A DNA stretch of 26,436 bases, taken from positions 1 through 26,436 of the forward strand of contig NW_026516527.1 in assembly GCF_025602895.1 (NCBI RefSeq), in the 5' to 3' direction. Source of the DNA: Polychytrium aggregatum (taxonomy: Eukaryota > Chytridiomycota > Chytridiomycetes > Polychytriales). Shown piece by piece: positions 3,609-26,436 of the stretch (the first letter of the stretch is position 1; each line of letters starts with the position of its first letter). The notes beneath the pieces are model-generated. The model saw nothing but the letters and a program-made list of their open reading frames with translations. It did not search any database and was not told the origin of the DNA. The position numbers and the translations under genes were made by a program.

Positions 3609-5059
3609 TCATGCTTGACTCATGTTCTCGCTGTTGCCTGTGTCGGCAGCACGTTGGTCCCAGCGGGCGGCCTCTTCCGGTTTGGCTCGACTCCTTCGCC
3701 GTTACGATAGCAGCCGGCAAGAAACGTGCTGTGCAGCCGGCAGACCAAGCTCCGCAGCGGATCTGAGGAGCTCAAACGCCTGGACTTGTCGGTTGCTGTG
3801 CCTGAGCCGTCCATATAGCATTGCCCAAGCAGCAGCTTCGCCTCGACATGACCCTGGCTTGAAGCTGTCTCGAACAGCTCGAATGCCTTCTTGTAGGATC
3901 CCACTGTTCCGAAATCAAAGTAGTAACAGTAGCCGAGGTAAAACTTGGCATCCATATTGTCTTGTTGATCCAGCATGGATGCGAGCTGGAACAGGGTATC
4001 CTTGGCAAAGTCGACGTCTCTGTCTGATGATTCTCGATACCATCGCAGGGCCTGGGAAAGGTCTTTCGGTCTGCCTATACCATGCTCGTATTCAAATCCG
4101 CAACAAAGGGCACCGTAGCGGTCGTCTTGGTCCGACAGTCTTCGTGAGAGACGGATGAGGGCCTCTTGAGCCTCACCGGAGCCCTGCCGAGCCACCCGCT
4201 GATACCACTCCAGCGCTTTCCGATAGCTAGTGCGGTGCCCATTGCAGTCTTCGTACGCGCTTCCAAGCCAGAGCTGCTCGGACGCATCCGAGGGCTCGAA
4301 GTTCGAAAGGAGATCGAAGAGTGCGCGCTGTGCGTCGATGCAGCGCTTGCGTGCTGCCTGGCGGTACCATTCAACAGCAGCCATGCGATCCGCAGCGATG
4401 CCAAAACCATGCTCAAAGCAGTGGCCGTAAGCGAACAGTGCGAAGGCGTTGTCCGTTTCGACGTGAGCCGAGGAAAGCAGGAAGAGATGGACTTGAGATT
4501 CGAGATGGCCGTGATCCGCAGCACGCTTGAACCAAATCAATGCACTACTAATGTCGGCCTCGGTCCCAGTTCCGGTTTCGTAACGCCGGCCGGCTTGAAA
4601 CTGGGCCTCAGCAGATCCTTGCTCAGCAGCGCGTTGGAACCAGTGGAGGGCGCTTGCATGATCGACTGCGGCGGTGGTCCCCTGCTCAAAATGCCGGGCC
4701 ATCTCGATCTGCGCATTGACCCGACCACCGGCCGCGGCGGACTCGAGGAGCTTGAGTGCCTTCTCACGATCCATCTCTGTGCCAAGGCCGTCGCGACAGC
4801 AGAGGCCAAGTCTGAAATGAGCGTCGTAGCACCCTTGTTGAGCAGCTTTCTCGAGCCACGGGATAGCCCGAGCCGGATCCGCTTCGACCCCGAATCCATC
4901 GAGATAGCATTCACTCAGTCGGAACTGCGCCTCGGCAATTCCTCCATCGGCGGCCTTGGCAAAGGCATCAACTGCCTTGGACTGGCGGCGGGGGTCGGGC
5001 GAGGTGGCGAGATAGCGAGCATATGCGAGTTGGGTCTGCGGAGTGTCGGTATAGCTGGC
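3609..5059 (-). CDS. Sel1-repeat (SLR) protein region, possibly the C-terminal exon of the adjacent NLR
   Basis: About nine to ten Sel1-like repeats are visible, with the pattern AQ..L...Y..G.G...D...A..W...AA..G, for example AQFRLSECYLDGFGVEAD near the start. SLRs are paired alpha-helices related to TPRs and serve as protein-binding scaffolds. The frame has no ATG: its first true Met lies inside the second repeat, and a TGA stands upstream at 5080-5078. A candidate 3' splice site (CCACAG before 5059) and polypyrimidine tract precede it. A candidate donor at 5150 in the NLR ORF would join the two in phase 0. An alternative is a separate gene starting at the ATG at 5136, whose other-frame peptide has a signal-like hydrophobic stretch, followed by a frameshift. 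Near the C-terminus three one-base shifts (about 3779, 3725 and 3675) alternate the frame that keeps the SLR pattern. The uncorrected frame stops at 3620; the corrected one stops at 3609. Confidence 0.72.
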
Positions 5060-5141
5060 CTGTGGAGCCAAGGAAGATCAGCCAGAATGAACAAGACGGC
5101 AGGCAACATAGAGGGTAGAGTGCAGCAACGAATCATACAGA

Positions 5142-8100
5142 TTAGCGTACCACGATCTTTGTCAAGCGATGGAAGACCATGTAGATCTGGCTGTCATCAG
5201 AGACGTGGCGAGAGTACCAATCAAAGAGATTGTGAGGAATCTTGATAATGTGTTTGTTGTGCCGCAGCCACTGGGTGGACTCGGCTGCCTCCATCCATGC
5301 AGTTGGTGGCGGTCGGCCAAGATCAGTAGCTTCGAAATCGATCAAGGCCTTTTCGGAGCGGACGAATTCATCATCCCTGCTCATCCAGAGAATAGTAACG
5401 TCGTCATAGTCGGTGCTTGTGATGATACGGCCGTCGGGGGAGATGTCGATGGAGACGGGTGCTCCTGCGTGTCCCTCGAGTGTTTGTCTGAGACGGCCAG
5501 TTTCGATATCCCAGATCTTGATCGTATTGTCGTCCGAGCCAGAGACGATTCCCTTGTCGCCTGGTAAGATGACAATCGACTGGACGTCCATGTTATGGCC
5601 ATCGAGCGAGTGTATCAGGCGGCCAGAAGAGGCATGCCATACTTTGACGGTGTGATCATTCGATCCGGAGATGATGTGCTGGCCGTCAAATGACACCGCA
5701 ACTGCTCCAACTGCTTCGGTATGACCCTCGAGGGTCTGGAGACGCTTTCCAGAGACAATGTCCCATATCATGATCATCGAGTCTCTCGATCCAGAGACGA
5801 TCGACTGGCCATCAGGAAGGGCTGCGAGAGCAAGCACATAGTCGGTGTGTCCTTTCAGATTCAGCTTGAGCCCACCTGTGGCCAGATCCCAAACCTTGAT
5901 AGTGGAGTCATTGGACCCGGAGGCGATGGTACCCCCATCAGGAAGCAAAATAGTAGCTCGTATGTAATCCATGTGGTCCGTGACCGACTCTGGAGTCTGG
6001 GCATTCGCATCCCAGATTTTAACCGTCATGTCTTCGGAGCCGGACAGGATCCACTGGCCGTCGGTTGAAACGGCCAGGGCAAGGATGTAATGATCGTGTC
6101 CAACGAGGGTTCTCTTGAGATGCCCCAGGGATGCGTCCCAGATCTTGATGGTTTTGTCCCAGGATCCAGACACAATGAAGCGGCCGTCATGGCTGACGGT
6201 AACGGCGCCCACGGAGTTGGTGTGGCCTTCGAGCGTCATCTTCAACTTGCCAGTGACAAAGTCCCAGACTTTGACTGTGTGATCAGCCGAGGCTGAGACT
6301 ATAGAGCCTCCATCAGGCGCAAAGCAGGCTGAATAAACCCAGTAGGTGTGTCCTTCGAGAGTGTGTTTCAGCTGGCCTGTTGTGGAGTCCCATATCTTGA
6401 TGGTGTTGTCGCACGACCCGGATAAGATCCATTTTTGGTCTGGGGAGTAGGCGACACAACAGAGTGGCTCGGTATGGCTTTCGAACGTGTGCTTTGCTTG
6501 GCCGGTTGCAATATCCCACACCTTGATGGTCTTGTCATCAGAGCCAGAGACAAGGTATTCATTATCCGGGGAGAAACAGAGGCTACGTATCCAGTGCGTG
6601 TGGTCCTTGAGGACGTACTTGAGCTGGCCGGTGACCACGTTCCACATCTTTATGACGTTGTCGCATCCACCCGACGCAGCGGTTTTGCCGTCAGGAGATA
6701 TGGCTGTCGTCAAGTAAGCTTGCTCGCCACCACCAAGGGTTCGTTTCAGCTGACCAGAGACAGCATCCCATATTTTGATTTCTCCGTCGTTCGAGCCTGA
6801 TATGAACCACTTGCCGTCCGCCGAAAGGGAGACATAATTTAGGCAGTCAGTATGTTCTGTGAGTGTCATCACACACGGATCCCAGGTGGGTGCTGGACCG
6901 CAGGTGACCAGGAACGGAATCTTGTCCTCGAGTTGGTCGGCATATGTCTTGTAGATCGCCGTCTCCTTCGGTGTGAATGCATATCCCGAGTTGTACACCT
7001 GTGGTGCACTCTTGATGATCGGGTCGGCAAACTCGCGGATGAATCGATACGTGTCCTTGACCAGTTCCTTCGTGGTATCGTCGACGACGGTGCTGGGTGC
7101 CTTGGCGATCACTCCTCGCAGCACAGCCAGTTGCTCGATGATCGGCTTGACCACATGTGTGAGCGACCCACACTCGAGCCAGAAGAACACATGAGTCTTG
7201 ACGAACCGAGTGAGCACCGCTGCCACATCGACCATCTCGGTCGACTGCCACACCGGACTCGACTCGGCCACTCCATCCACACACCACACAAAGTGTGTGA
7301 TCCAGTGGGCGACGCTGTATCGCAGCGACGGTGTGATCTTGGCTGCGACCCTGTCCTCGAGGTCTGGGGTGTTGTCGTGAAAGTCGTAGATATCGCAGAT
7401 GTTGATCACTGGCTCGTGCGAGAGGATCACGCCGAGACATCCCATGGCAAACACCGTGTGGAACGAGTCCGACACATGCCACGGATGGCCAGTCGATGCG
7501 TCACCGAGGAGATAGTCCGCCACCGACTTGTGGTTGAACTTGACCTCGGTGTTGGTGGACTGGCTGTCTCGGGGACCCAGTCCATTGGCGCCAGGATCGA
7601 GGACCAGACTGAGGCTCTTGAGACACTCGCAAACGACGCCGATCTCGAGTCCAAACACATCGGCGATGATGTATGGGGTCAGGATCGACTGGGCCGTGGC
7701 AATCGCCGACACCACCGTGACCAGCTCGGCCGGATGGCTCGACTGCGAGTGGATCTTGGCGAATGTCTTGTGGTACAGTCCCTTGAGATCCACCGACGAG
7801 TCGTTGATTTCTCGGATCATCTCGAGAGTCAGTGTCCGTGGCTCGTGTGCTGCGTCGCTCTCCTCGCACGGCGTCGATCCAGGCTCGGGAGTCTCCAGCT
7901 CGTGCTCGACGGTGTTGAGGATCAGGTTGATCCACACGAATGTCTTGGACTGGTCCAGCAGCACCGAGATCGCCTGGGTGCGGTCCGACTCGCTGAGGCT
8001 GGGATGGTCCCTGAGACGATGGTCGATGAACACCCGGAGGTCGCGGATGTTGTCCTCGCTCGACGGCTCGATCGTCGTGGTCGGCACTCCTCGGAAGGCA

Positions 8101-10408
8101 TCCCTGATGTCGGCCTCGGGGCGGGACGTCAGCAGCAGCTTGATCCGGGACTCGTCCTTCAGCTGTGTGAGTCGCCAGGCCAGGAGCGACAGGATCTCGT
8201 CGCGCGGATGGCACTCGTCCAATCCATCGACCATCACCACGACGGCTCCCTTGGGCCGGTACTGGCCAAGTGCCTCGAGTGGATCCTCAATCACGGCCTT
8301 GAACAGATCGTTGATGCTCATCTTGTCGAGGTCGTCCTTGGAGTGGCCAGCATCGAGGAGCCGACGGCCGATCGGTGCGTACCAGCGACACAGTCCATAT
8401 GCGATCGTGGTCAGCAGGATGCGGGGGTTGTTCTTGCGGGTGTCGTTGTACTTGAGGAACAGCGATGTCGTCAGCTGGTCCCGGCCAAGGAGGATGTTGG
8501 CGATCTGGGCAGCAGCGACGGACTTGCCGACACCGGCGACGGCATTGACCCACAGGACCCGGTCGGCGTTGTCGTCGTCGTCGACCCAGGCAGTGACATG
8601 GTCAAACAGCCACTGGCGGGTGCCCTCGACATACAGATCCTCGAGCGCCTTCCTGTCGGGGTCAAAGTCGATGGGATCGAGCAGGACGCGGAGCTGCGAG
8701 TCTTCGTCGGCAGCGAGGACGATGGGTCGGCTCTGGTGGTAGAGGATGCCCTCGGCGATGGCCCTCTCGGTCTTGGCCACAAGCACTCGGATGTACGGAG
8801 AGAGCCTGTGTGGTGGCGGGGGATGGACGAGTGCGAAAGGGAATGTGGTCAGTTAGATGTGGTCAGATGGATGTGCAGCAAGGTGAGGCGATGTGTATGG
8901 TGTCGTGTGGTGTTGTGAGAGAAGTCTGATGCAGCATGGTGCGCATGACATTGATGGTGTGCATGACATTGATGGTGTGTATGGTGTGCAGGATGTTGCG
9001 ATCACGCATGACAGCAATGCAGCAGAAATGGCTTGCCATCGATGGGATGACAGCAGCCACCCACCTCATCACCGCCGTCCCATCGGCGGCATTGAACTGC
9101 TGGAGAGCCAGGACATCTCGGATGGTCTGGCGGATCGATACGGGCTTGCCGTCGACGAGGGGACTCAGATCGTGGCAGGGCGGCTCGTCGGGAAAGTCGT
9201 CGGGGTTGGGGAAGTACTTGGAAGCATAGGTCTGGTTGTTGATGATGCGGGTCGACCACATGTAGACGGGCTGGACGGTCACCGGGCGGCCGGTGGTGGC
9301 CGACTCTCGCATCCGACGCAGGGCATGCTGGACCTGAGTGTGAGTGTGAGTGTGAGTGTGAGTGTGAGTGTGAGTGTGAGTGTGAGTGTGAGTGTGAGTG
9401 TGAGTGTGAGTGTCAGGGACTATCGAGTGCAAGTGCATCGACATGGAGGCTCGGCCAACCGCTCGCTTGCTCACCTCCAGGAACTGGTTGTCTGGCTTGA
9501 GGTGTGCCTCGCGGGTGCGGCTCAGTCCCCGCTCCGACAGAACCAGCACAATGACCTGCGAGTTGACCAGGCCGTTGATGAAGCCCGTCTCCCAGTTCAT
9601 GGCATCGACGAGACACAGCTGGTCGAGGTACGGACACAGGTTCTTGTCGTATTGGCTGGACGACTTGAGGGCGGCGTAGAGCTTGATTGCGGGCATCTCG
9701 TCGCTGAAGACTCGATAGCTGGGCAAAGAGGCGATGGTCAGTGGACACTCTGGATGTCGATGTTGCCAGTGCAGACATGGACATGGATTGATGATCAACC
9801 GGCTGGAGTGCAGACACCCCACACTGCACCACAGACATCGCCGCACCTGATGAACACCTCGTGGTCCCTGTTGCCCAGCTGGCACTTCCATCCCCTCGTC
9901 AGCGGAGGCGGTCTGTATCGGACCACAGGGAGAACAGCATTCTCGCTGCTATCGGGTGTCTTGGATGGCGGTGGCTCGCTCTTGTGGACGACAACAGGCG
10001 GCTCGGTGTTCTGGCGCTGGGCTCGCTGGATCTTCTTGATGGCGCCGAGCTTGAGCCCGATCTGCTTCATCTCTGGCTCGGTCAGAGAGAGGACCTGGAC
10101 AGGCAGCCGTTGTTCAGCAACAATGTCTAGATGGCCAGGGGCATCGACGGCCGCAGTGTCGGCGACATTCCATCGCCAGCACGGACATCGCCAACCATCG
10201 AGTGCATCATGCCATCGGCGACAGAGCCAAGCAACCCACCAGGTCGGTGCTGTTGATCTCGTGGTCGACCAGGAGGGTCTTGTTCCTGGCGAGATCGTGC
10301 TTGTCCAGGAAGGCATCAAAGTCTGGCACAAGGGTCAGCAGCAGACATTGCCGTCACCCGCCATCGGTGATGCATCATCAACAGAGTCTCACCTGTGGCT
10401 GCAGACAT
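5142..10408 (-). CDS. NLR-type STAND receptor: SAM-TIR-NACHT-WD40
   Basis: Proposed exons in gene order are 10408-10393, 10322-10240, 10094-9847, 9718-9475, 9333-9065 and 8805-5142. All are GT-AG and in phase, giving about 1507 residues. A SAM domain (about 6-61) spans exons 1-3 and ends in the motif IGLKLGAIKKIQRA. A TIR domain follows (about 109-235), from HEVFISYRV to QVIVLVLSERG and PVTVQPVYMW. Its likely catalytic Glu is the last codon of exon 4 (NQFLE). The NACHT NTPase has Walker A AGVGKS (about 378-382), Walker B VVVMVDGLDE (about 475-484) and LLTSRPE. The winged-helix region contains FNHKSVADYL. Twelve WD40 repeats (about 930-1440) share the pattern GHT..V...SGS.D.TIKIWD and form the probable sensor. 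By family knowledge, such proteins oligomerise on ligand binding and signal through TIR, often by NAD cleavage. No ligand can be inferred. Exon 1 (16 nt) is the least certain part. Confidence 0.88.
8938..8993. repeat. short tandem repeat in NLR intron 5
   Basis: Two copies of about 18 bp containing GCATGACATTGATGGTGT, plus partial copies, lie in the 259-bp intron 9064-8806. There is no sign of function. Confidence 0.7.
9335..9412. repeat. hexanucleotide microsatellite (TGAGTG)13 in NLR intron 4
   Basis: Thirteen perfect copies of TGAGTG run up to the 3' splice site of the intron between exons 4 and 5 of the NLR. On the gene strand it reads (CACTCA)n and ends in the acceptor CAG, so the repeat replaces the usual polypyrimidine tract. 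Its long Thr-His open frame is not expected to be translated. Confidence 0.95.
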
Positions 10409-10994
10409 GGCACGCTGGCTGCTGGATGGGATGTGCGGACGGATCGATGAAAGAATCGATGGAAAGCTGGATGGGCTGGAGGTTGACAGATGGAGACGAG
10501 GGAGAGGCACCGAACATTGGGCCAAGCGGAAAGGGCGTGCCAAGTGGGCGACCAAGCACCGCCCCCGTTCGGAATCGAGAACGTGACAACCCAGAGCGAA
10601 TCGATCGGGCTGGCACAGCACATCCAGACCACCTTGCTGAACATCTCGAATACACGGTCAGATCATTTAGATCAACGCAATCGGCTTGAACGTATAACCG
10701 ACGGCATGATCGAGACAGCAGGGCTATGCCAAGGACCGCATGTTTCCGATCCTGCCAACATGCGCCAAGGAGATTGTATCCAGGCATCTGCTTTCTCGTT
10801 GTTTGGGGCATCGCTCTCGCGGTTGGAGGAAGAACAGCCAGCATGGTCGATCAGGATGTGTACGGCCAACCTTCCGACACTTCTGAGGTATCTCCAACGC
10901 AGCGAATGTCATCGGTGCAGAGTGATTCATGGATCGCCATGTCAACACAGTCGGGGACACATCATGCAAGTCGCTCATGTACACTTTATTCAGA
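10409..10994. other. intergenic region upstream of the NLR, nothing recognised
   Basis: This stretch separates the NLR start from the end of the Fanzor element and probably holds the NLR promoter. Open frames on both strands match no family I know. The only clear sign is AATAAA on the minus strand at 10990-10985, immediately outside the element. Confidence 0.5.
10985..10990 (-). terminator. AATAAA poly(A) signal just outside the Fanzor element
   Basis: AATAAA on the minus strand lies 5 bp beyond the terminal inverted repeat and about 90 nt after the Fanzor stop codon. A Fanzor transcript that used it would run through the element end into flanking DNA. That is where guide sequence would be expected. 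Confidence 0.4.
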
Positions 10995-11007
10995 AAAAAA
11001 CGGGACA
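10995..11007 (+). repeat. left terminal inverted repeat of the Fanzor element
   Basis: The sequence AAAAAACGGGACA is the exact reverse complement of 14609-14621. It also takes part in a local hairpin with 11014-11019 (AAACGG with CCGTTT, 10-nt loop). On the gene strand that hairpin is followed by seven T residues. Confidence 0.65.
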
Positions 11008-11078
11008 ATATAGCCGTTTCCATGAACAGTAGTATGTGCTGTGCTTGCGTCAAGCAAAGCCACAAGAAATAAAACAGA
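10995..11078 (-). ncRNA. candidate Fanzor guide-RNA (fRNA) scaffold at the element end
   Basis: By analogy with known Fanzor and TnpB loci, the guide RNA scaffold lies between the nuclease stop codon and the transposon end, and the guide comes from DNA just outside. This 84-nt stretch has that position. It holds two possible hairpins: TGCTTG/CAAGCA with a 3-nt loop at 11042-11056, and AAACGG/CCGTTT at 10998-11019 overlapping the inverted repeat. There is no expression evidence, and a two-hairpin pattern can arise by chance. Confidence 0.3.
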
Positions 11079-13451
11079 TCACTTTGGCAGCCTCCGAGTG
11101 AAGACCGCCGGTCGCTCTCCGATCTCCACAATCGACCTGCATACTGTGATCATGTTGCGCGCCGCATTGACGTCGCGATTCCACACTGTCAGGCAGCTGG
11201 GATTCTTGCAGCTCCTGACAAAGTGGGAATTCGCAACACTGGGCGCATCGAGTCCTTCCAACCGAACTGGCTCCAGGCACTTGGAGCACACTTGCGAGGT
11301 GTTGAACCCGTTCGTCGAGGCCACCTTGACACTTCCATGATGGTGATTGGGACGGCGTCGGTGGTGCTCGAATTGCTCAAAGTACCGAGCAAACCGCTGC
11401 CTCCGAGGGCTGGATGCATAGCCCTTGCCTTGCCGCCATGACGCATTGCCAAAGGCGATCACCACATCGGTCCGTATCGGGGCGTGCTTCAGGACGGCCT
11501 TGCACATCCTGTCGACGGCCACTTGGCGCCTCTTGTGGCCCGTGAAGCGATGGTGGCGAGCCTTCTTGCCAAGGTGGAAGTCGAGCTGCACTCGCAGCTC
11601 CGGTCGCAGGACATGGGTGAGATGGACCTTGAAAGCCTCCGAGGACGACACCTTGGGCGAGGGGGTGGTCGACATCCAGGTCTCGATGCTGAGTCGATAC
11701 TTCATGGTGTTGTGCCACTTGGTGTTGGACGTATGGCCACACATGTGCTGGTAGTGGCCATTGGAGAATGAGACCACCTCGTCTTGGTGGCCCGGTGCTT
11801 GGATGACCGCCGTGAAGATGGAGCCGACGCCTGGGTCGATTCCAATCCAAGTGGTGCGATCGGGGTCTGGGTCGCCGATGTGGGCCTGGATACGCTGCTC
11901 GGCAGTCGGAGGAGGCTCGATGGTCTCGGTGTGATCGGTTCGAGGCAGAAACTTGACGAGGCCGATGGTGCATCCAATGCCATCGGTGCTGATCTCGTAG
12001 TTGAACAGCTTGTGATTGATATCCCGGTCACGGAAGAGGGAACTACGCAGCTTGAAGCAACTGCGCCAGAGACGATCCTGGTTGTTGACACCGTCCTCAC
12101 CTTCTTCCTTGAGCATGTCCCTGGTGAGTCCAAGGCGCTTCTTTGGACCCAGGAGTTCCCAGAGAGTGACCGTGTCAATCTTGACATACTTGGCCCTTGT
12201 AGTGCACAGAGGAACCATCGTTCACACGGCCGGAGGAGTGTCAAGAGCGAGCTGCTTGAGGCACCACTTGAGTCTGGATGCCAGCTTGTTGATCTTGGCC
12301 TTGGTGGTGCCGAGCTCAGACTTGGCCGTGGTGAACCTCTTGTCGTCGGAGGGAATGCCTTGGGTAGTGAGCTCGTCCAGCTTGGCCTGGCGCTGCAGCT
12401 CGGTGACTCGGAGGGCGGGCATGTCACAGTCGATCCACTTGTGGACATTGTCGACCATCTTGTCTCGGGCGAGGATTCCCACATGGTGTGAGAGGCGATG
12501 GAGGGCTCGGAAGCGGTCCTGGTCGTTGCTGTACCGAAACTCGTCCAGGACGTGACCAAACTCGGGATAGAGGAACTCGAGATCGGCCTTGGGTGGTGTC
12601 TGCCCTGGTTTCTCGAAGAGCTCGAGACAGGCCTCGATGGCTTCGTGCTTATGCTTGTTGGCTGGGAAGACGGCAGCGCAGAAGCGGCGAAGGAGTCGCC
12701 AGTAGGCCAGGTCGAGGTGGGTGGTGCAGTTGGTAGCATAGGCATTGACAGCGAGAGTGAGAAGCTGACTGCGAGCACCATCAGGCAGACAAGGGGCCGG
12801 AGGCAGGTCTGCGTGCCGAGTGGTCTGGTAGTCGCGAAAGGAAGCGACCAGATGCTCGTTGTATTTCTCATTGTCCCCAGTCGGCGAGAGGGCACCGGCC
12901 TGGACGATCTTGAAGCATTGGCGAACGAAAGCAGGTGTGGCCTTGGAGATGACGGGGACGGGAAGATCCTGCTCGATGCACCGGAGGATGTGCAGGTTGA
13001 GCAGCCTGGATGCCTCGAACTGGATCTGTGTCATGACCTCGACGGTGGCCTGGATCTTGTCGCGGAGAGCGGGATTGAGACAACAGCCATCCATCGTCTG
13101 CTTGAAGCAGCTGTAATGAGGGGCGGATGACCTTCCATCCACGGGTGGGACGACAGAACTCTTGAGGGGCCGGTATTTGGGACACTTGCTAGTGTTGCTT
13201 CGCTCGTGATCGGTGCCATCGCACTGGCGACATCGCTTGCCGGTACTCGAGGAAGTAGATGGACCAGGCTCGGTGGGATCGACATCCATTGGATCTGCAG
13301 AAGCAGTGGTGGTGAGCGACGGAGCAACAGACGAACAAGCATGCGTGGGATCAGAAGACGAACCAGAGACAGGCTCCGACTGTGACTTGGCTTTCTTGGG
13401 CCTGGGCGGCCGAGGCTGGCCATCACCGGTACCCTTGCGCTTCGGAGGCAT
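11079..13451 (-). CDS. Fanzor1-type RNA-guided nuclease relative, interrupted by one in-frame TGA
   Basis: Two same-frame segments (13451-12222 and 12218-11079) are separated by a single TGA at 12224-12222, making about 790 codons. The N-terminal part has a basic nuclear-localisation-like stretch (PPKRKG ... PRPPRPKKAK) and a small zinc motif CRQC....H........CP. The C-terminal part has the TnpB/Fanzor RuvC core. Counting from the ATG at 12218, Asp128 lies in IGIDPGVG, TS at 307-308 precedes a C4 zinc finger (C311, C314, C337, C342), and D349 lies in NRD. This fits the published Fanzor1 signature D-x(125-275)-[TS][TS]xx-C4-x(5-50)-RD. Glu is absent from the canonical RuvC-II site (VVIAFGNASW), as in other Fanzors. 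The position before FNTS, where I recall the alternative Glu, is Gly304. The nonsense codon and this Gly suggest a dead or dying nuclease. Start choice: the ATG at 13451 opens the basic region. Confidence 0.88.
12222..12224 (-). other. in-frame TGA inside the Fanzor gene
   Basis: The frame is open for 409 codons before and 380 after this TGA. No GT-AG intron removes it while keeping the frame. TGA serves as the normal terminator of the S28, EARS2 and Fanzor genes here, so recoding is unlikely. A C-to-T change of CGA (Arg) in a CpG context would create it. Confidence 0.8.
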
Positions 13452-13744
13452 GGGGGCAGAGGATGCTGGATGCCTGCCAGTGGTACTGGTCAGAACAGAG
13501 ACTTTTTTTTATCGTGCAATAGCGCGATGATCAGATCAAGGCGAGATGAGGGAAGAAAGCAGCAGGACGAAGGTGTGGCATTTATACCCGAGAGCAGGAA
13601 CCCGTCTTTGCGGGCTGGTTGGGGAAGTGACCCTGTTCAAAAATCGCCGAGAGGTTCAAGCCAGGGATGTGAACGCGAAAATGGCGGCTTGATTGGGGGA
13701 CTAAACCCCAAATTGGAGGAACTCAACCCCAAATCGGTGGGGAC
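13452..13744. other. spacer between transposase remnant and Fanzor start
   Basis: This is upstream of the Fanzor ATG in the transcribed direction and presumably holds its promoter. It contains an A8-T8 type tract at 13504-13511 and most of the GGGGACTCAACCCCAAA repeat array. I see no further gene. Confidence 0.5.
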
Positions 13745-13777
13745 TCAACCCCAAAATGATGGGGACTCAACCCCAAA
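13696..13777. repeat. four-copy 21-22 bp tandem repeat, GGGGACTCAACCCCAAA
   Basis: Copies begin near 13696, 13717, 13739 and 13761; the last two are identical over 17 bp and the others differ at one or two sites. Each unit can fold, since GGGG pairs with CCCC across six bases. The array overlaps the 3' end of the transposase frame and supplies its last codons, so it has probably replaced the original C-terminus. Confidence 0.9.
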
Positions 13778-14551
13778 GAAGTTCTCGATGGGATTGAAGT
13801 CGAGTGAGGCAGGTGGGGTGAAGATCACTGACCATCCACGGTGCTCGATGCAGTCCAGGACAGGCATTGTCTTGTGCATGCTGACATTGTCCATCACAAC
13901 CACAGAGTCGTCTGGGAAGGTCGCTCGCTCAAAGAACTCGACCATCGAGTGTGTCTTGAATGATGTGGGGATGTACATGCGATGCAGCACACCAGAGTGG
14001 TTGATGGCAAATGCCACCGAGACAGACTTGTGCTTCATGTGATTGCGCTGACGGAGTGGGACGCCCTTCGGTGAGTATCCGTAAAGAGGGAAAATGGATC
14101 TCCTGATCCCTGTCTCATCGACAAAAACGAATCACCGCGGGTCGATGGAGCGGACCTGGTCCCTGAACTGTGCCACTCGCTCATCCAGTCGCTTGGACTT
14201 GTTGAGGTGTGTTGCTCTCTTGTGTGAGAGACCTGCTCGCTGGATGGCAGTGTGGCAGAGTGAGAGTGATACTTTCCTCTGGAGGATGGACTCGAGCTTG
14301 CATCGCAACACAGGACCAGTCTGGAACGGGTCCTGTTCAATCAGGGTGCGAATGACTGGACATGCCTGCTCGAAGAAAGTGGATCTGCGAGCTGGGACCC
14401 GGGATGGGTCATCCAGCTTGCATCCTCGGTGCCATCGATGGATGGTGCTCTTGGATACACTGAATATGGAGGCGACCTTACGCAGGCTATGGATGAGATC
14501 GTAGCATCGCAATGCGGCGGTGCGAAAGTCGGATGTGTGGCGAATGGTCAT
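13745..14551 (-). pseudogene. DD34E Tc1/IS630-type transposase, broken by TGA and truncated
   Basis: The frame starts at the ATG at 14551. An N-terminal helix-turn-helix (LRKVASIFSVSKSTIHRWHRG) should bind the inverted repeats. The catalytic triad is intact: Asp in FVFVDETG, Asp in VVMDNVSMHK and Glu in NPIENFFG. There are 34 residues between the second Asp and the Glu, hence DD34E. One in-frame TGA at 14134-14132 sits just before the first catalytic motif. The frame ends 12 residues after the Glu inside the GGGGACTCAACCCC array, where related transposases continue for some 30 or more residues. It lies upstream of Fanzor in the same orientation. It cannot make a full protein without readthrough, so movement would need a helper copy. 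Confidence 0.87.
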
Positions 14552-14608
14552 GGCCAGCGCGCGATGGTTTTGGGTAACAAAATATTCGATCAATGGTCAA
14601 AACCTGGG

Positions 14609-14621
14609 TGTCCCGTTTTTT
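14609..14621 (-). repeat. right terminal inverted repeat of the Fanzor element
   Basis: TGTCCCGTTTTTT is the inverted copy of 10995-11007. A TA dinucleotide overlaps its outer edge (14621-14622). On the minus strand AATAAA spans 14623-14618, so the repeat may also supply the poly(A) signal of the S28 gene, whose stop lies about 170 bp away. Confidence 0.65.
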
Positions 14622-14792
14622 ATTGGATTGCCTGTAAATCAACCACGTGTATTCACGACAGCATTTCCCGGCACGAACAACGACGAATAGTCCGCCTCTT
14701 GCACAAGAGCTATTCAAGTTCATGTAATGTACTCTGGTAGATGCAGAGTACCCCTGTATGATATTGCAGGGGCTGCGACAACCCCAAAGTCA
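14622..14792. other. gap between the Fanzor element and the S28 gene
   Basis: This short stretch is the probable 3' UTR of the S28 peptidase gene, which reads towards it. Nothing else is recognised. Confidence 0.5.
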
Positions 14793-17070
14793 TCAGTTCG
14801 CGAGCTGGGATCGGCAAGTATCACCGGCCATGAACTTGTCCCAGGCGGCCATGACTTCGACTTTGACTTTGCTGAGTAGAGGGGTGTCGTCCGGGCGAGG
14901 CGCATACATGTCCAGGCAATGGAACTCATCGTGAAGGAACACGGGCTGGGCATCGGTCGACGTGCGGTTGTAGATGCTCAACATGTGCCAGGGATCAATC
15001 TCGCTGTTGACGAAGGAGATGCGGCTGGTTTTGATGTTGGTGCCGCGGTAGCGTTTGTTGGTCTGGGCGACATGCGGGTTCTGGTGGTCCTTGCCAAAGA
15101 GAATGGCACAGGCCCGCTTATAATAGGCCATGTTGACCGTCTTGGAGTAGACGGGGGCTTGAACGTGCTCGGCATCCTGGAAGAACCCAAACTCGGTGCA
15201 CGTTTGCCAACACCAGGGGCGATAGCTGTTGCTTGGGTCGGCCATGTTCTTGGTCTCCAAGGCGGCAAGCTCGGTGGCGTTGTTCGGGATGATGCCCATC
15301 CCGTCCAGATATCCGTACATCCACCTTTGGAGATCAGTCCAGAGCTGGCTATCGGTGGCATTTGGATTGGCAAAGGAGGGAAAGTACTTTCCGGAGCATG
15401 CGGCGCTGATATGAGTGACCGAAGAATTGTAGAATTGGGCAGAGGGACCTGGATGTGGAGGGCATTGGTGGTTAGCAGCCCAATAACATCTTGGCTTTGG
15501 GCTAGGCTGCCGGCAAAACCCAATACAGCTTGATGGCCGACCGAGTTGTCAAAGCTCAAACGGCTTCAAGCACGGCCTCGTATGCTTGCCTCGTATGCTT
15601 GCCAAGCGGACCTACCAAATTGAACCGAGCCAGCCAAAGCACTGGTTGGAAGCATGCTTCCGACATCTCCGTCGAGCTCGATCGAGCCCAGACCCAAGTA
15701 ACGGCGAGTGCCCTTGGGGTCGCGCTTGAGAGCAGCATCAAAGAGCGAAACGGTGCGAATGAGGTTGTTCAGGCAAACCTCTGAACCGCCGATCTTGGGA
15801 ATGCCCTGGCGGACGGCAAGCGAATACTCGAAAAAGTCGGCTTTGGCCCGAAGTGGGGCCGACGACGAGTACGCAGCCCAGAAGATATCGGGGTACAGCT
15901 CGCGGAGCCAGGCAGCGAGATCACCAGGGTAGGATCCACTGACCTGGAGGAACGAAGCAGTGTCAGTCAAGGGCAAAGAGGAGCCAGCCGGCGACCGTCC
16001 CAGACATAATCACGGGAGCAGAGTCATCAAAGGCGCACCGGAATCCATTTGGTGCAGGACGGAAGATTGTGGGTGGCCGTAAAGTTCTTGACAAAGGCCA
16101 CAATGTCCTCAATAGCCTGATGCGACGAGAGATAGGCCATATTCTTGGTCGAATAGTCCGGGAAGGGCATCGAGTCACCATAGTAGCGGTGTTCGATGGC
16201 AGCCATGATGCCGTTCGTTTTGTTGGCAAGCGTGAAGAGCACCATGCCCGTCGAGGTGACCCATCCGCCATCTAGTGGAACCTCTCCGCCCACAAAGACT
16301 GCGGCCAGGAGTGCGTTAGACATTTGCGAGCCGTGAGGCGAGGTATGTACTTTCGGGATGCGTAAGGTCACTCACGCCAAACGGGACCACCAGGCTTGTA
16401 GTACTAGTTGCGATTAAGCACCGAGAGGCGGCGAGGAATCATTAGCATGGCGGGTATCTCGGTGAGCCTCGCTAGCCGATGTGGATGAGCGACAGATGAT
16501 GCTCTGCGAGCATGCTTCGGTGGCACAACAGAGAGCAAGGCATCCTCACCTGATCATTGAAGAAGTACTTCTGGCGGAAGGTACCGTTGGACTTTGGTGA
16601 GAAGTGATCGAGAGGCTGTCTCGGAGGGAAGGAAATCGATGCGAGGTCCGCATCAAAACGCAGAGTCAATGAATCGGCTGTCGCCCAACAAGAAAGAGCC
16701 TCGACGACGAGAGCGGCCAACGGGGCGATGAGTCAGAAGGCGAGCATGGCACAAACCTGGTCAATCCAATATGGCGTAGGTCCTCCTAGGACAGACTCGC
16801 CACCAGTGCCCAGGATACTGAACGAGCGACGCAGTACAAAATGAATCCATGCATCAGAGGTCGGATCAGGACGTGGGCAGAGCGATGGAGGCAGAGCGAT
16901 GGAGGCAGAGCGATGGAGGCGGCAACAGCTTCCCAGGCAACAGCACGTGCTTACGCTTTAACCTGGGTCTGATGCTGGTTCTTCTGGATTTGCTGGATGG
17001 CAAAGCTTCCCAGGACAGCGGTGGGGGCCAAGACGAGGGCGATGAGCTTGGATATGTTCAGGGCGACCAT
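14793..17070 (-). CDS. secreted serine peptidase, family S28 (Pro-X carboxypeptidase / DPP2-like)
   Basis: Proposed exons in gene order are 17070-16955, 16817-16757, 16699-16550, 16403-16376, 16298-16039, 15943-15616 and 15448-14793. All joins are in phase and give about 532 residues, usual for S28. The N-terminus is a signal peptide (SKLIALVLAPTAVLG). Family landmarks in order are QPLDHF, KYFFNDQ, YYKPGGPVW, GGEVPLDG, EHRYYGDSMPF, and the nucleophile Ser in VSGSYPGDLAAW. The other two triad members are Asp in NSEIDPWHML and His in DEFHCLDMY. The enzyme removes residues after proline and acts in the secretory pathway or outside. Exons 2 and 3 (61 and 150 nt) are the least certain, because the 5' splice site after exon 2 (GTTTGT) and the 3' site before exon 3 are weak. 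No frame break is seen. Confidence 0.87.
15575..15600. repeat. 13-bp direct duplication in S28 intron 6
   Basis: GCCTCGTATGCTT occurs twice in tandem inside the intron 15615-15449. Confidence 0.85.
16877..16918. repeat. 14-bp tandem repeat, three copies, in S28 intron 1
   Basis: GCAGAGCGATGGAG is present three times without interruption inside the first intron of the S28 gene. Confidence 0.9.
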
Positions 17071-23985: not shown

Positions 23986-24006
23986 GGCAAGACCGATTGA
24001 ATGCGA

Positions 24007-24052
24007 CCGACAAAGCCTGGCGATCGACAAAGCCGGGCGATCGACAAAGCCT
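24007..24052. repeat. 17-bp tandem repeat in the divergent promoter region
   Basis: The unit CGACAAAGCCNGGCGAT occurs twice in full and once in part (24007-24023, 24024-24040, and from 24041). Confidence 0.9.
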
Positions 24053-24258
24053 GTGCGCTGACGAGCAAAGGCTGGCTCCGCGATCGACATGTGGACTCGA
24101 TGCACATCCCCACAACCCGCAGCGACATTCCGGCGAGGCTCGCTGCCCGTGCTCGAGCGCTCTTTCTCCTCTCCCTCGCTCGCTGTTCTTTGCAGTTTCG
24201 GACCAGCACAAGACACCGGAATCCGCCGTCTTGCCTCTGCCGTCTCGCAGCCGCCACG

Positions 24259-26436
24259 ATGGCCCTGGTCGACGCATTGTCGCCGTCCAGCGACAACCTG
24301 TTCGAGTGCAGCGCCCACGGCAAATGCCATGACTTTTTCCTCTCTTACCGAGTCCGCCCCGATTCGAAGGCGGTCGAGGACCTCAAAGAGCTGCTGTCGT
24401 CTGTGGCACTGCGCCGTCTTGACCGGCCTCTATCTATCTTCCATGACATTGACTGCTTGAACGATGCCAAGGACTGCAAGGACGGCTTCCTTCGGGCCCT
24501 CCCCGGCAGCTCGGTTGTGATCCTGTTCCTGAGCAAAGACTCGCTGATGACCATGCAGGCCCGAGAAAAGGACGGCCAGGAAGACAATGTCCGACTCGAG
24601 GTCACCCTGGCTCTCGAGCTGTTCGAGGCCGGAAAGCCCATCACCGTGATGCCGCTGTGCCTGGATCTGAAGGATGGATCCGGTTACCGACCGTTTGCCC
24701 CGTATGAAGACCCGGAGCTGACGCAGCCGTCATGTCCCGAGACCCACAGCCTCGTCAAGCGCCTCAAAGCCATCCAGATGTATGGCTACCGGCCAGAGGA
24801 GCCCCACAAGCAGCTCTATCGGCTGCTCAACCTCCTCCACCCGATCGCCGTCGACGAGCTCACCAACAAGCACATCTACTCCAAGTACTTTTGTGACCCC
24901 AAGTTTGAGATCGAAATGGACAAGCTCGATGGCCTCCTGAAGCAAATCACCCTGACGGGCCGGGCCATCATCTCGGGCATGGGTGGCATGGGCAAGTCGG
25001 TGCTCGCCCGCCAGTTCCTGCGCTTCATGATGGGCAAGCTCAAGGTCAAGAACCAGACCGAGCTCAGCGACTACATGATGGATACCATCGGGGTCAAGCC
25101 ACAGTACAGCAGAGTGCACTGGATAAACTGCTCGGGCGAGTTCTCTGCCCTCTACGACCTCAGCGCCATCTTTCCGGGAGTCGATCGGCAGGAGATCAAG
25201 GAGCATGCTGCATGGATGTTCGCCAACGAGAGGGACTACCTCCTCGTCCTCGACAACGTCGACGACATCCGCATCGTCAACTCGGTGTTCAGCCACTCGC
25301 GATCGCTGGGCTTTGGTGGCGACGTCTTGGTTACGACTCGCCTGCCGCTCTTTCCCAAGGGCCCGTTCCTCGATGCGCTCAAGGCCAAGCTACCGACGTT
25401 CAAGCAGGAGCCGCTGAAGCTGGAGCGGTGGTCCGTCGAGAAGACCAAGCGGTACATTCTCTCGGCGAGTCCCTCGCTCCAGAGGAAAATCCAGTCGCTC
25501 GAGTCGGTGAAGGCACTCACGCGGATGCTCAGTGTCGTCGACGGCCATCCGCTGGTGGCCCAGTCCTTTGTCTCTCACTTTGAAAACAACAGCACTCCGA
25601 TCTATGAGTTTGAGAACTGCATCGACGAAGTACTGCAGGAGAGCGTCGGTGACGACGAGACGCGCTCGTCGCTCAAGGTCATTGTGGACCAGTCGATGGA
25701 GAGCATGCAGAAGGACGGCGACGAAGGACGAGAGGCCTGCCGCATATTTGGAGCGATCGCTCTGCTCAAGGAGAATGGCATTCACTATCGTCTCATCAAG
25801 GGGATCGCACAGAAGCTGGGGTTATTGATCCAGAGTAAGTGCAACGCAATGCTTGATGGGAGATTGTTGGAGTATGGAATGAGGGACGAGCGAAGGGTCG
25901 GCTGTGCTGGTGCTGCTGGTGCTGGTGCTGGTGCTGGTGCTGGTGCTGGTGAATATCGGGCAATGTCCGATCTGGAAATCCATCGAGCCGGGCACTCCTT
26001 ATGGACCGATGGCTGACTATGCCTCACCTACTTGCCCAGCTGGACAGCTCCTCAAACGAGTGACCCACACCGGGCTTCTTCACGTGGACTCGAACGACAC
26101 CTACCACACACACTTGCTGGTGTCGAAGTTGGCGTGGGAATACGTGCTCAGGGAACCCGAGCTCAAGGCCGCCGATATCAACACCGCCACTGGCGAGGCA
26201 CTTTTGGAGCTTGGCTCAGTGCCCACGGATGCCAAAGTACTCGAAAACATTCCGCATCTGGAGCAGTATGCGGCCAAGATGCGCACCAGTGTCAGCCACA
26301 CTGACATCCATGTCAAGATTGTCCGGCTCATCGAAGCAATCGAGGGCGAGAAGCGAGCCTGTCTGGGTGCGGCGGCACCCGCTGCCCAGCCCGAGACAGC
26401 GATGGTGCATCCTGTGGCTGAGGTGGGTTTGGCCGC
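24259..26436 (+). CDS. NLR-type STAND receptor: TIR-NB-ARC, 3' end beyond the window
   Basis: Exon 1 is 24259-25834 and exon 2 starts at 26040. A possible donor (GAG then GTGGGT) lies at 26423, so the coding part of exon 2 may end at 26422. The TIR domain (about 23-135) runs from HDFFLSYRV through VVILFLSKDS to PITVMPLCL; the likely catalytic Glu is E114 (VRLEVTLALE). The NB-ARC part has P-loop GMGGMGKS (240-247), Walker B YLLVLDNVDD (327-336), VLVTTR (356-361) and VDGHPLVA (GLPL-like). Exon 2 is helical and leads towards a sensor region, probably repeats, outside the window. By family knowledge it is a self/non-self or pathogen receptor whose TIR may cleave NAD. Start choice: the ATG at 24259 directly precedes the TIR. 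The same frame is open further upstream, but without similarity. Confidence 0.87.
25914..25952. repeat. (GGTGCT)n microsatellite in the TIR-NB-ARC intron
   Basis: About six copies of GGTGCT lie within the intron 25835-26039. They make an open Ala-Gly run if the intron is read through, but the donor (GTAAGT) and acceptor (CCCAG) are good and the frame soon stops. Confidence 0.9.

What the first reader, a model, noticed from the sequence alone, without database searches (positions are those of the whole stretch)
11079..13451. Fanzor1-type gene in a fungal genome, split by one nonsense codon
The C4 finger, the TS-xx-C spacing and NRD match the Fanzor1 signature, and the N-terminal half adds a nuclear-localisation-like stretch and a small zinc motif. 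The reading frame is continuous for about 790 codons apart from one TGA. A full-length relative, if it exists in the same genome or species, would be a new programmable nuclease candidate.
Basis: partly seen in the sequence, partly recalled or inferred. Interest (0 to 1): 0.9.

Follow-up and report, generated by a model that had tools for sequence, protein, structure and literature searches.

The report
Dead copy of abundant Fanzor transposon
In a chytrid fungus, a broken gene for an RNA-guided DNA cutter (Fanzor) turns out to be one dead copy of a very abundant jumping gene, many copies of which still carry a whole Fanzor gene, so this fungus is a good place to ask what Fanzor does for its carrier.

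Summary
In detail: minus strand 13451-11079 is one frame of 789 sense codons with a single TGA at 12222-12224, and it encodes a Fanzor1 protein. A profile of relatives hits SpuFz1 at E=5.7e-30 with the three catalytic residues aligned; the seven best fold matches are Fanzors. It is not a lone gene. It is cargo of a 3,657-bp Tc1/mariner (IS630-type) transposon, 10980-14636, beside a transposase that is also broken. The host is the chytrid Polychytrium aggregatum. Its assembly holds 396 left and 381 right ends of this element. Of 108 Fanzor copies scored, 76 have an open frame of at least 790 codons. The window copy is dead twice over: it also lacks the catalytic glutamate that 28 of 30 copies keep. 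The family evolves under purifying selection. Its right end folds like a guide-RNA scaffold. The exact left end follows a T (T-TA) in 172 of 178 places, with no such rule on the right; this predicts the targeting motif TTA. Fanzor1 in mariner elements is known since 2013; this is a new, abundant member. Function is inferred.

The parts
10980..14636 (-). whole transposon copy, 3,657 bp, counting the TA at each end
   Evidence: ends shared between copies while flanks differ; TA duplication read from paralogous empty sites of another copy
14637..14637 (-). host T immediately 5' of the left TA (T-TA site)
   Evidence: T at this place in 172 of 178 exact left ends
14609..14636 (-). left terminal inverted repeat TACAGGCAATCCAATAAAAAACGGGACA
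13748..14551 (-). IS630/Tc1-mariner DDE transposase gene, broken: in-frame TGA at 14132-14134 and deletions in its 3' part
   Evidence: intact relative P0002 hits NF033545 at 123.3 bits, cut-off 100
11079..13451 (-). Fanzor1 coding frame (790 codons plus stop), broken by a TGA
   Evidence: family by relatives:
12222..12224 (-). in-frame TGA, codon 410
   Evidence: 28 of 30 copies have a sense codon here
13182..13232 (-). N-terminal Cys motif (Cys 74, 77, 90), also seen in several metagenomic relatives
11829..11837 (-). RuvC-I DPG motif (residues 539-541), D539 opposite SpuFz1 D383
11307..11309 (-). place of the catalytic glutamate 715 (opposite SpuFz1 E541); glycine in this copy
11172..11288 (-). 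zinc-ribbon cysteines 722-753 and RuvC-III Arg-Asp 759-760 (D760 opposite SpuFz1 D606)
10980..11111 (-). right-end stretch of 132 nt, candidate guide-RNA scaffold (end of the coding frame, 3' untranslated part, terminal repeat)
   Evidence: the matching stretch of copy L032 folds at z=-3.78, 1 of 200 shuffles as good, lowest of 31 tiles along that copy; right end kept in 4 Fanzor-less derivatives. The window copy's own stretch was not folded.
10980..11007 (-). right terminal inverted repeat TGTCCCGTTTTTTTCTGAATAAAGTGTA

Best explanation
The feature is an inactive copy of a high-copy Tc1/mariner (IS630-type) transposon that carries a Fanzor1 gene. In working copies the transposase would cut the element out and paste it at TA (shown: TA duplication at one locus; inferred: activity). 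The Fanzor1 protein would bind an RNA made from about the last 130 nt of the element, whose 3' extension is the host sequence to the right of the insertion (inferred from SpuFz1 and from the fold here). After excision, that guide together with the motif T-TA on the left matches exactly the rejoined empty site. Cutting it would force repair from a filled copy and so keep or restore the element (inferred, as proposed for bacterial TnpB). Purifying selection on Fanzor in the lineages that spread is shown; retention is the most likely reason for it.
Against: No RNA, protein or cutting data. The T-TA rule could be a taste of the transposase alone. Sub-stretches of the right end fold less strikingly: 104 nt z=-1.68, 116 nt of the coding end z=-0.63, 166 nt z=-2.23. 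The synonymous rate at the 3' end is only weakly low: in the last 20-40 codons 9.5-17.8% of windows are as low, in the last 56 codons 2.2%, a length picked after looking; other stretches (codons 1-40, 321-360) are about as low. The one subfamily copy with a nearly identical Fanzor C-half, L035, has A, not T, before its left TA. Foldseek rmsd values are large (16-20 A; TM-score by query 0.44-0.48) and the model is of middling confidence.
Confidence: 0.7

Rival explanations
1. The transposase alone demands T-TA in one orientation; Fanzor is cargo kept for another reason (for example attack on rival elements, or help in transposition), not for retention at the site.
For: The T is near absolute, like a requirement for insertion. 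The transposase also shows purifying selection in shared variants (dN/dS 0.35, 36 N and 41 S, 16 elements). A related terminal-repeat family in the same genome takes A or T at this place (27 A, 34 T, 2 G in the 63 rows with 0-1 mismatch; the pattern counts G or C there as a mismatch, so these are under-listed), so site taste varies between families.
Against: A symmetric transposase dimer would be expected to give A on the right about as often as T on the left (my inference); right-side A is 57 of 296, 19% against 13% background. In Spizellomyces the matching bases are the measured Fanzor motif. Only 5 of 18 full elements have the full-length transposase frame, while 13 of 18 have an open Fanzor frame of at least 790 codons.
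Confidence: 0.3
2. The TGA lies in an unrecognised intron or is a sequencing error, and the window gene is functional.
For: It is the only stop in the frame; other genes in the window look split into exons (for example two S28 peptidase pieces).
Against: 28 of 30 copies have a sense codon at this place and read on in frame; the copy at the same site on C223 has the same TGA; both have also lost the catalytic glutamate.
Confidence: 0.03
3. The zinc ribbon/NRD part belongs to an unrelated family and the Fanzor label is wrong.
For: A single-sequence search against solved structures gave only E=0.11 for SpuFz1 with the C-terminal piece and nothing with the N-terminal piece.
Against: Profile E=5.7e-30 over profile positions 280-647; DPG, TDG and the shifted glutamate typical of Fanzors; fold matches.
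Confidence: 0.01

Closest known systems
SPu-1 / SpuFz1 element of Spizellomyces punctatus (PMC3627910 passages; PMC10432273 passages and section 7)
   Same: Fanzor1 in a chytrid (host group of Spizellomyces as recalled), TA duplication, many near-identical copies, Fanzor-less derivatives that keep the right end, conserved bases before the left repeat
   Different: SPu-1 is about 2.1 kb with a single reading frame (17 full-length copies in the 2013 paper; 42 Fanzor loci, 19 of them full-length, and 134 derivatives in the 2023 paper); here the element is about 3.7 kb with its own transposase, 396 left ends, T-TA instead of CA-TA; the two proteins are related only at profile level
Mariner elements PGv-1 and PUl-1 with Mariner transposase plus Fanzor1 (PMC3627910, passages)
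   Same: Mariner transposase and Fanzor1 in one element with TA duplication
   Different: PGv-1 is given there as single-copy, in a virus, with a further nuclease gene; here hundreds of ends in a fungus and no third gene seen
Bacterial IS200/IS605 and IS607 TnpB systems
   Same: RuvC nuclease with zinc ribbon in a transposon; guide expected from the right end, motif at the left end
   Different: DDE transposase instead of the TnpA recombinases of those families; 790-aa Fanzor1 with a large N-terminal part and shifted glutamate
Second Fanzor family in the same genome (called B here)
   Same: 68%, 53% and 57% identical over 14%, 17% and 6% of the query (P0009, P0010, P0012)
   Different: other sequence and apparently other element ends; 150 matches scored of 1097 candidates

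Membership tests
Fanzor1 | D-X(125,275)-[TS][TS]-x-x-C4 finger-X(5,50)-RD motif (PMC3627910) | tested here: met
   D539, T718 S719, Cys 722/725/748/753, R759 D760 in P0001; the same in 30 copies except D760 in L016
Fanzor1 | DPG in RuvC-I and glutamate in the shifted position (PMC10711439) | tested here: met
   DPG in 30 of 30 copies; E715 opposite SpuFz1 E541, present in 28 of 30 copies, lost in the window copy and its same-site twin
Fanzor1 | TDG motif in the WED domain (PMC10711439) | tested here: met
   T489 D490 G491 in 30 of 30 copies and in the 9 aligned proteins
Fanzor1 | Fanzor fold | tested here: met
   model of P0001, pLDDT 68.4, pTM 0.58; seven best matches are SpuFz, PpFz and GtFz chains
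Fanzor1 | carried by a transposon other than IS607 | tested here: met
   IS630/Tc1-mariner transposase and ends
Fanzor1 | guide RNA from the right end reaching into the flank | tested here: inconclusive
   predicted fold only, strong for 132 nt, weaker for other lengths; no RNA data
Fanzor1 | RNA-guided DNA cutting | not testable with these tools
   needs a biochemical assay; the window copy itself should be inactive
Tc1/mariner (IS630 group) | DDE transposase of the family | tested here: met
   P0002: NF033545 123.3 bits (cut-off 100), PF13358 84.7 bits (cut-off 28.6); broken in the window copy
Tc1/mariner (IS630 group) | terminal inverted repeats | tested here: met
   28-bp imperfect repeats sharing TACA...AAAAACGGGACA
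Tc1/mariner (IS630 group) | TA target duplication | tested here: met
   one insertion (L040/L043) compared with 6 paralogous empty sites; not shown at the window site

The most novel reading that the evidence does not exclude
Fanzor cutting drives re-filling and gene conversion between copies. In five same-site pairs of elements on two contigs the elements differ by 0.6-3.4% over the aligned Fanzor part, in clusters, mostly at positions where both bases also occur in copies at other sites, while the flanks compared are identical or nearly so, except the left flank of one pair, which is itself the second Fanzor repeat and differs by 2.7%. This is what excision or cutting followed by repair from a copy elsewhere would leave, and it would be genomic evidence of Fanzor homing in a eukaryote. 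Mixing of repeat reads during assembly is not excluded.
Probability: 0.12. Interest if true: 0.85.

Novelty: new member of a known kind. Interest (0 to 1): 0.5.

Why it matters
What Fanzor does for its transposon in a eukaryote is little known (PMC10711439 says so, passage). A genome with hundreds of near-identical ends, some elements with both transposase and Fanzor frames open (4 of 18 full elements), Fanzor-less derivatives and a sharp site rule gives direct tests: predict the motif (TTA), look for the right-end RNA, compare excision with and without Fanzor. It also offers a new candidate nuclease of 790 aa with a predicted short motif.

Tried and rejected
Intron over the TGA: rejected, other copies read through. 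Extra T as part of the element: rejected for one insertion, where the T is already in the 6 empty paralogues; and the right end shows no comparable A. Empty alleles: two searches with joined flanks. The first (16 junctions) returned 40 rows of 221 candidates, all for one repeat-flanked junction, which gave its paralogous empty sites. The second (14 junctions) returned 40 rows of 51 candidates, no row spanning a junction fully. Guide-RNA signal by synonymous rate: weak. Fold of the second family's right end: no signal (z 1.01 and -0.37). One row, labelled WIN_A, was cut at the wrong place and is not used. The four-sequence alignment of right ends with subfamily copy L035 is too divergent in its last 50 columns to count paired changes, so no covariation count was made. 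The sister repeat family as a control for the T rule is only suggestive: that repeat may stand at both ends of an element. Dropped before counts: L006, L017, L002, L021; also L014, L022, L025; L031 and L043. Papers: 'Fanzor'+'Polychytrium' (0 papers), 'Fanzor'+'chytrid', 'Polychytrium aggregatum'+'genome'+'transposable element', 'Polychytrium aggregatum' (listing only). So this library does not describe the element under these terms; subscription papers, preprint servers and repeat databases were not searched.

Full report
OBSERVATION. On the minus strand 13451-11079 reads as one frame of 791 codons with one internal TGA at 12222-12224. The C-terminal piece matches Pfam PF07282 (E=7.3e-8, 32.9 bits, cut-off 26.3); the N-terminal piece has no Pfam match up to E=0.1.

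THE COPY IN THE WINDOW IS DEAD. Of 30 copies read, 28 have a sense codon at place 410 and 28 have E715. The two exceptions for both are the window copy and the copy at the same insertion site on contig C223. The full catalytic triad is present in 27 of 30 copies; the third exception, L016, lacks D760 and also has a stop.

THE ELEMENT. Copies share sequence up to one sharp right end...GAATAAAGTGTA, about 100 nt after the stop codon, and then differ. The left end is TACAGGCAATCCAATAAAAAACGGGACA. The two ends are imperfect inverted repeats. Between the left end and Fanzor lies a transposase gene on the same strand; the intact copy P0002 (310 aa) matches IS630 family NF033545 (123.3 bits, cut-off 100) and DDE_3. 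Eighteen full elements were read: 17 of 3,480-3,743 bp and the window copy of 3,657 bp. Ten of 18 carry a large deletion in the 3' part of the transposase: eight the same 105 nt, L045 and the window copy others; L032 has a 4-nt gap there. The window copy and L031 also have a stop in the transposase. Five of 18 have the full-length transposase frame, 13 of 18 an open Fanzor frame of at least 790 codons counted from stop to stop, and 4 (L034, L037, L038, L044) both. In the genome search 76 of 108 scored Fanzor copies have such a frame without an inside stop; 25 have shorter frames and 7 a stop inside the matched part. The first look had 1274 candidates, so 108 is a lower bound.

COPY NUMBER. The left end occurs 396 times with up to 3 mismatches and the right end 381 times with up to 2; the reversed patterns 0 times. 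So the number of distinct insertions is smaller, perhaps a little over 200 (my estimate).

TARGET SITE. One insertion (L040/L043) lies in another high-copy repeat. Six copies of that repeat without the insertion show TTTTTTTAACAAG or close variants where the filled site reads ...TTTT-TA-element-TA-ACAAG. So TA is duplicated and the T before it was there already. Genome-wide the exact left end is preceded by T in 172 places and by another base in 6 (two of the six, on C101 and C376, are one site on two contigs). In 20 sites read (16 full elements, 4 derivatives), T is at -1 in 19 and A or T at -2 in 16. In flanking DNA 13% of TA dinucleotides follow a T. On the right the base after TA is A in 57 of 296, 19%, modestly above background (p=0.002). 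The rule is thus one-sided. The subfamily copy L035 has A before its left TA. In Spizellomyces the element has conserved CA before the left repeat and the nuclease needs CATA (PMC10432273). By analogy I predict TTA, perhaps with A or T in front. This is inference.

GUIDE RNA CANDIDATE. The last 132 nt of copy L032 fold at z=-3.78 (1 of 200 shuffles as good); the last 104 nt alone gave -1.68 and the last 116 nt of the coding part -0.63; 166 nt gave -2.23. In my rerun five family copies gave -2.25 to -3.35, and this end was the lowest of 31 tiles along the element (-3.04, 60 shuffles each). Subfamily copy L035, much changed in its last 50 nt, still closes a long terminal helix ending at GTGTA (z=-2.23). 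Four Fanzor-less derivatives read in full, of nine spotted by coordinates in the first 100 listed ends, keep about 100 bp at the left and 167-217 bp at the right, as the derivatives in Spizellomyces keep a part similar to the guide-RNA region. Synonymous variation falls toward the 3' end of the frame (0.081 in the last 56 codons against 0.211 overall, 2.2% of windows as low), but shorter end windows are not unusual and other stretches are low too.

SELECTION. Among 26 copies (30 minus L006, L017 and one of each of two near-identical pairs) variants in two or more copies give dN/dS about 0.34 (122 N, 146 S), private ones 0.62 (114 N, 77 S). With one copy per site (23) the values are 0.34 and 0.55, difference p=0.02. 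The transposase shows 0.35 and 0.54 (16 elements). I infer that both proteins were needed in the lineages that spread.

SAME-SITE PAIRS. Window and L031: 0 mismatches in 4,721 flank positions (28 gap columns), 68 in 3,655 element positions. L041/L025, right flank only: 1 in 1,058 against 89 in 2,710. L047/L022, right flank only: 3 in 1,123 against 56 in 2,721. L049/L050: 1 in 2,415 against 28 in 3,739. L040/L043: right flank 1 in 995, element 130 in 3,629, but the left flank, which holds the second Fanzor repeat, 83 in 3,059. Over the Fanzor part the differences are clustered, and both bases occur in copies elsewhere at 16 of 18, 71 of 90, 73 of 84, 38 of 55 and 15 of 15 of them. Gene conversion between copies fits; so does mixing of repeat reads during assembly. 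I cannot decide.

VERDICT. A dead member of a large, selected mariner-Fanzor1 family with many open copies. The kind is known (PMC3627910). The family was not found in the papers I could search. Its number of ends is above the copy numbers I read: 17 full copies of SPu-1 and about 150 of CMe-1A in PMC3627910, 42 Fanzor loci plus 134 derivatives in PMC10432273; the comparison is rough, since my counts include sites present on two contigs and derivatives without Fanzor.

Noticed in passing
G000, e.g. C323:307349-307783, C364:320090-320524; also inside L040 and L043: A second Fanzor family, 150 matches scored of 1097 candidates in the same genome, open frames up to 1,011 aa. It seems to end about 300 bp beyond an inner repeat-like TGTCCCG...GACTGTA.
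   Followed up: partly
L031 against window; L041/L025; L047/L022; L049/L050; L040/L043: Elements at the same insertion site on two contigs differ far more than the flanks compared, in clusters of variants seen elsewhere: conversion or assembly mosaic.
   Followed up: partly
G000, 237 matches of WTACAGCGTTTCCAAAATGAAACGGGACA (up to 3 mismatches): A related terminal-repeat family with A or T before TA (27 A, 34 T, 2 G in the 63 best rows); its cargo is unknown.
   Followed up: no
window 5142-8786 (-), 24001-26016 (+), 3620-5071 (-): A long WD40-repeat protein, a protein with weak NB-ARC, AAA and TIR matches below cut-off, and a Sel1-repeat protein.
   Followed up: no
window 14793-15320 and 15566-15976 (-): Two pieces of a serine carboxypeptidase S28 gene just beyond the left end of the element.
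   Followed up: no
P0009, P0010, P0012: Public gene models of P. aggregatum hold Fanzor pieces inside longer proteins with other domains; probably gene-prediction artefacts.
   Followed up: no
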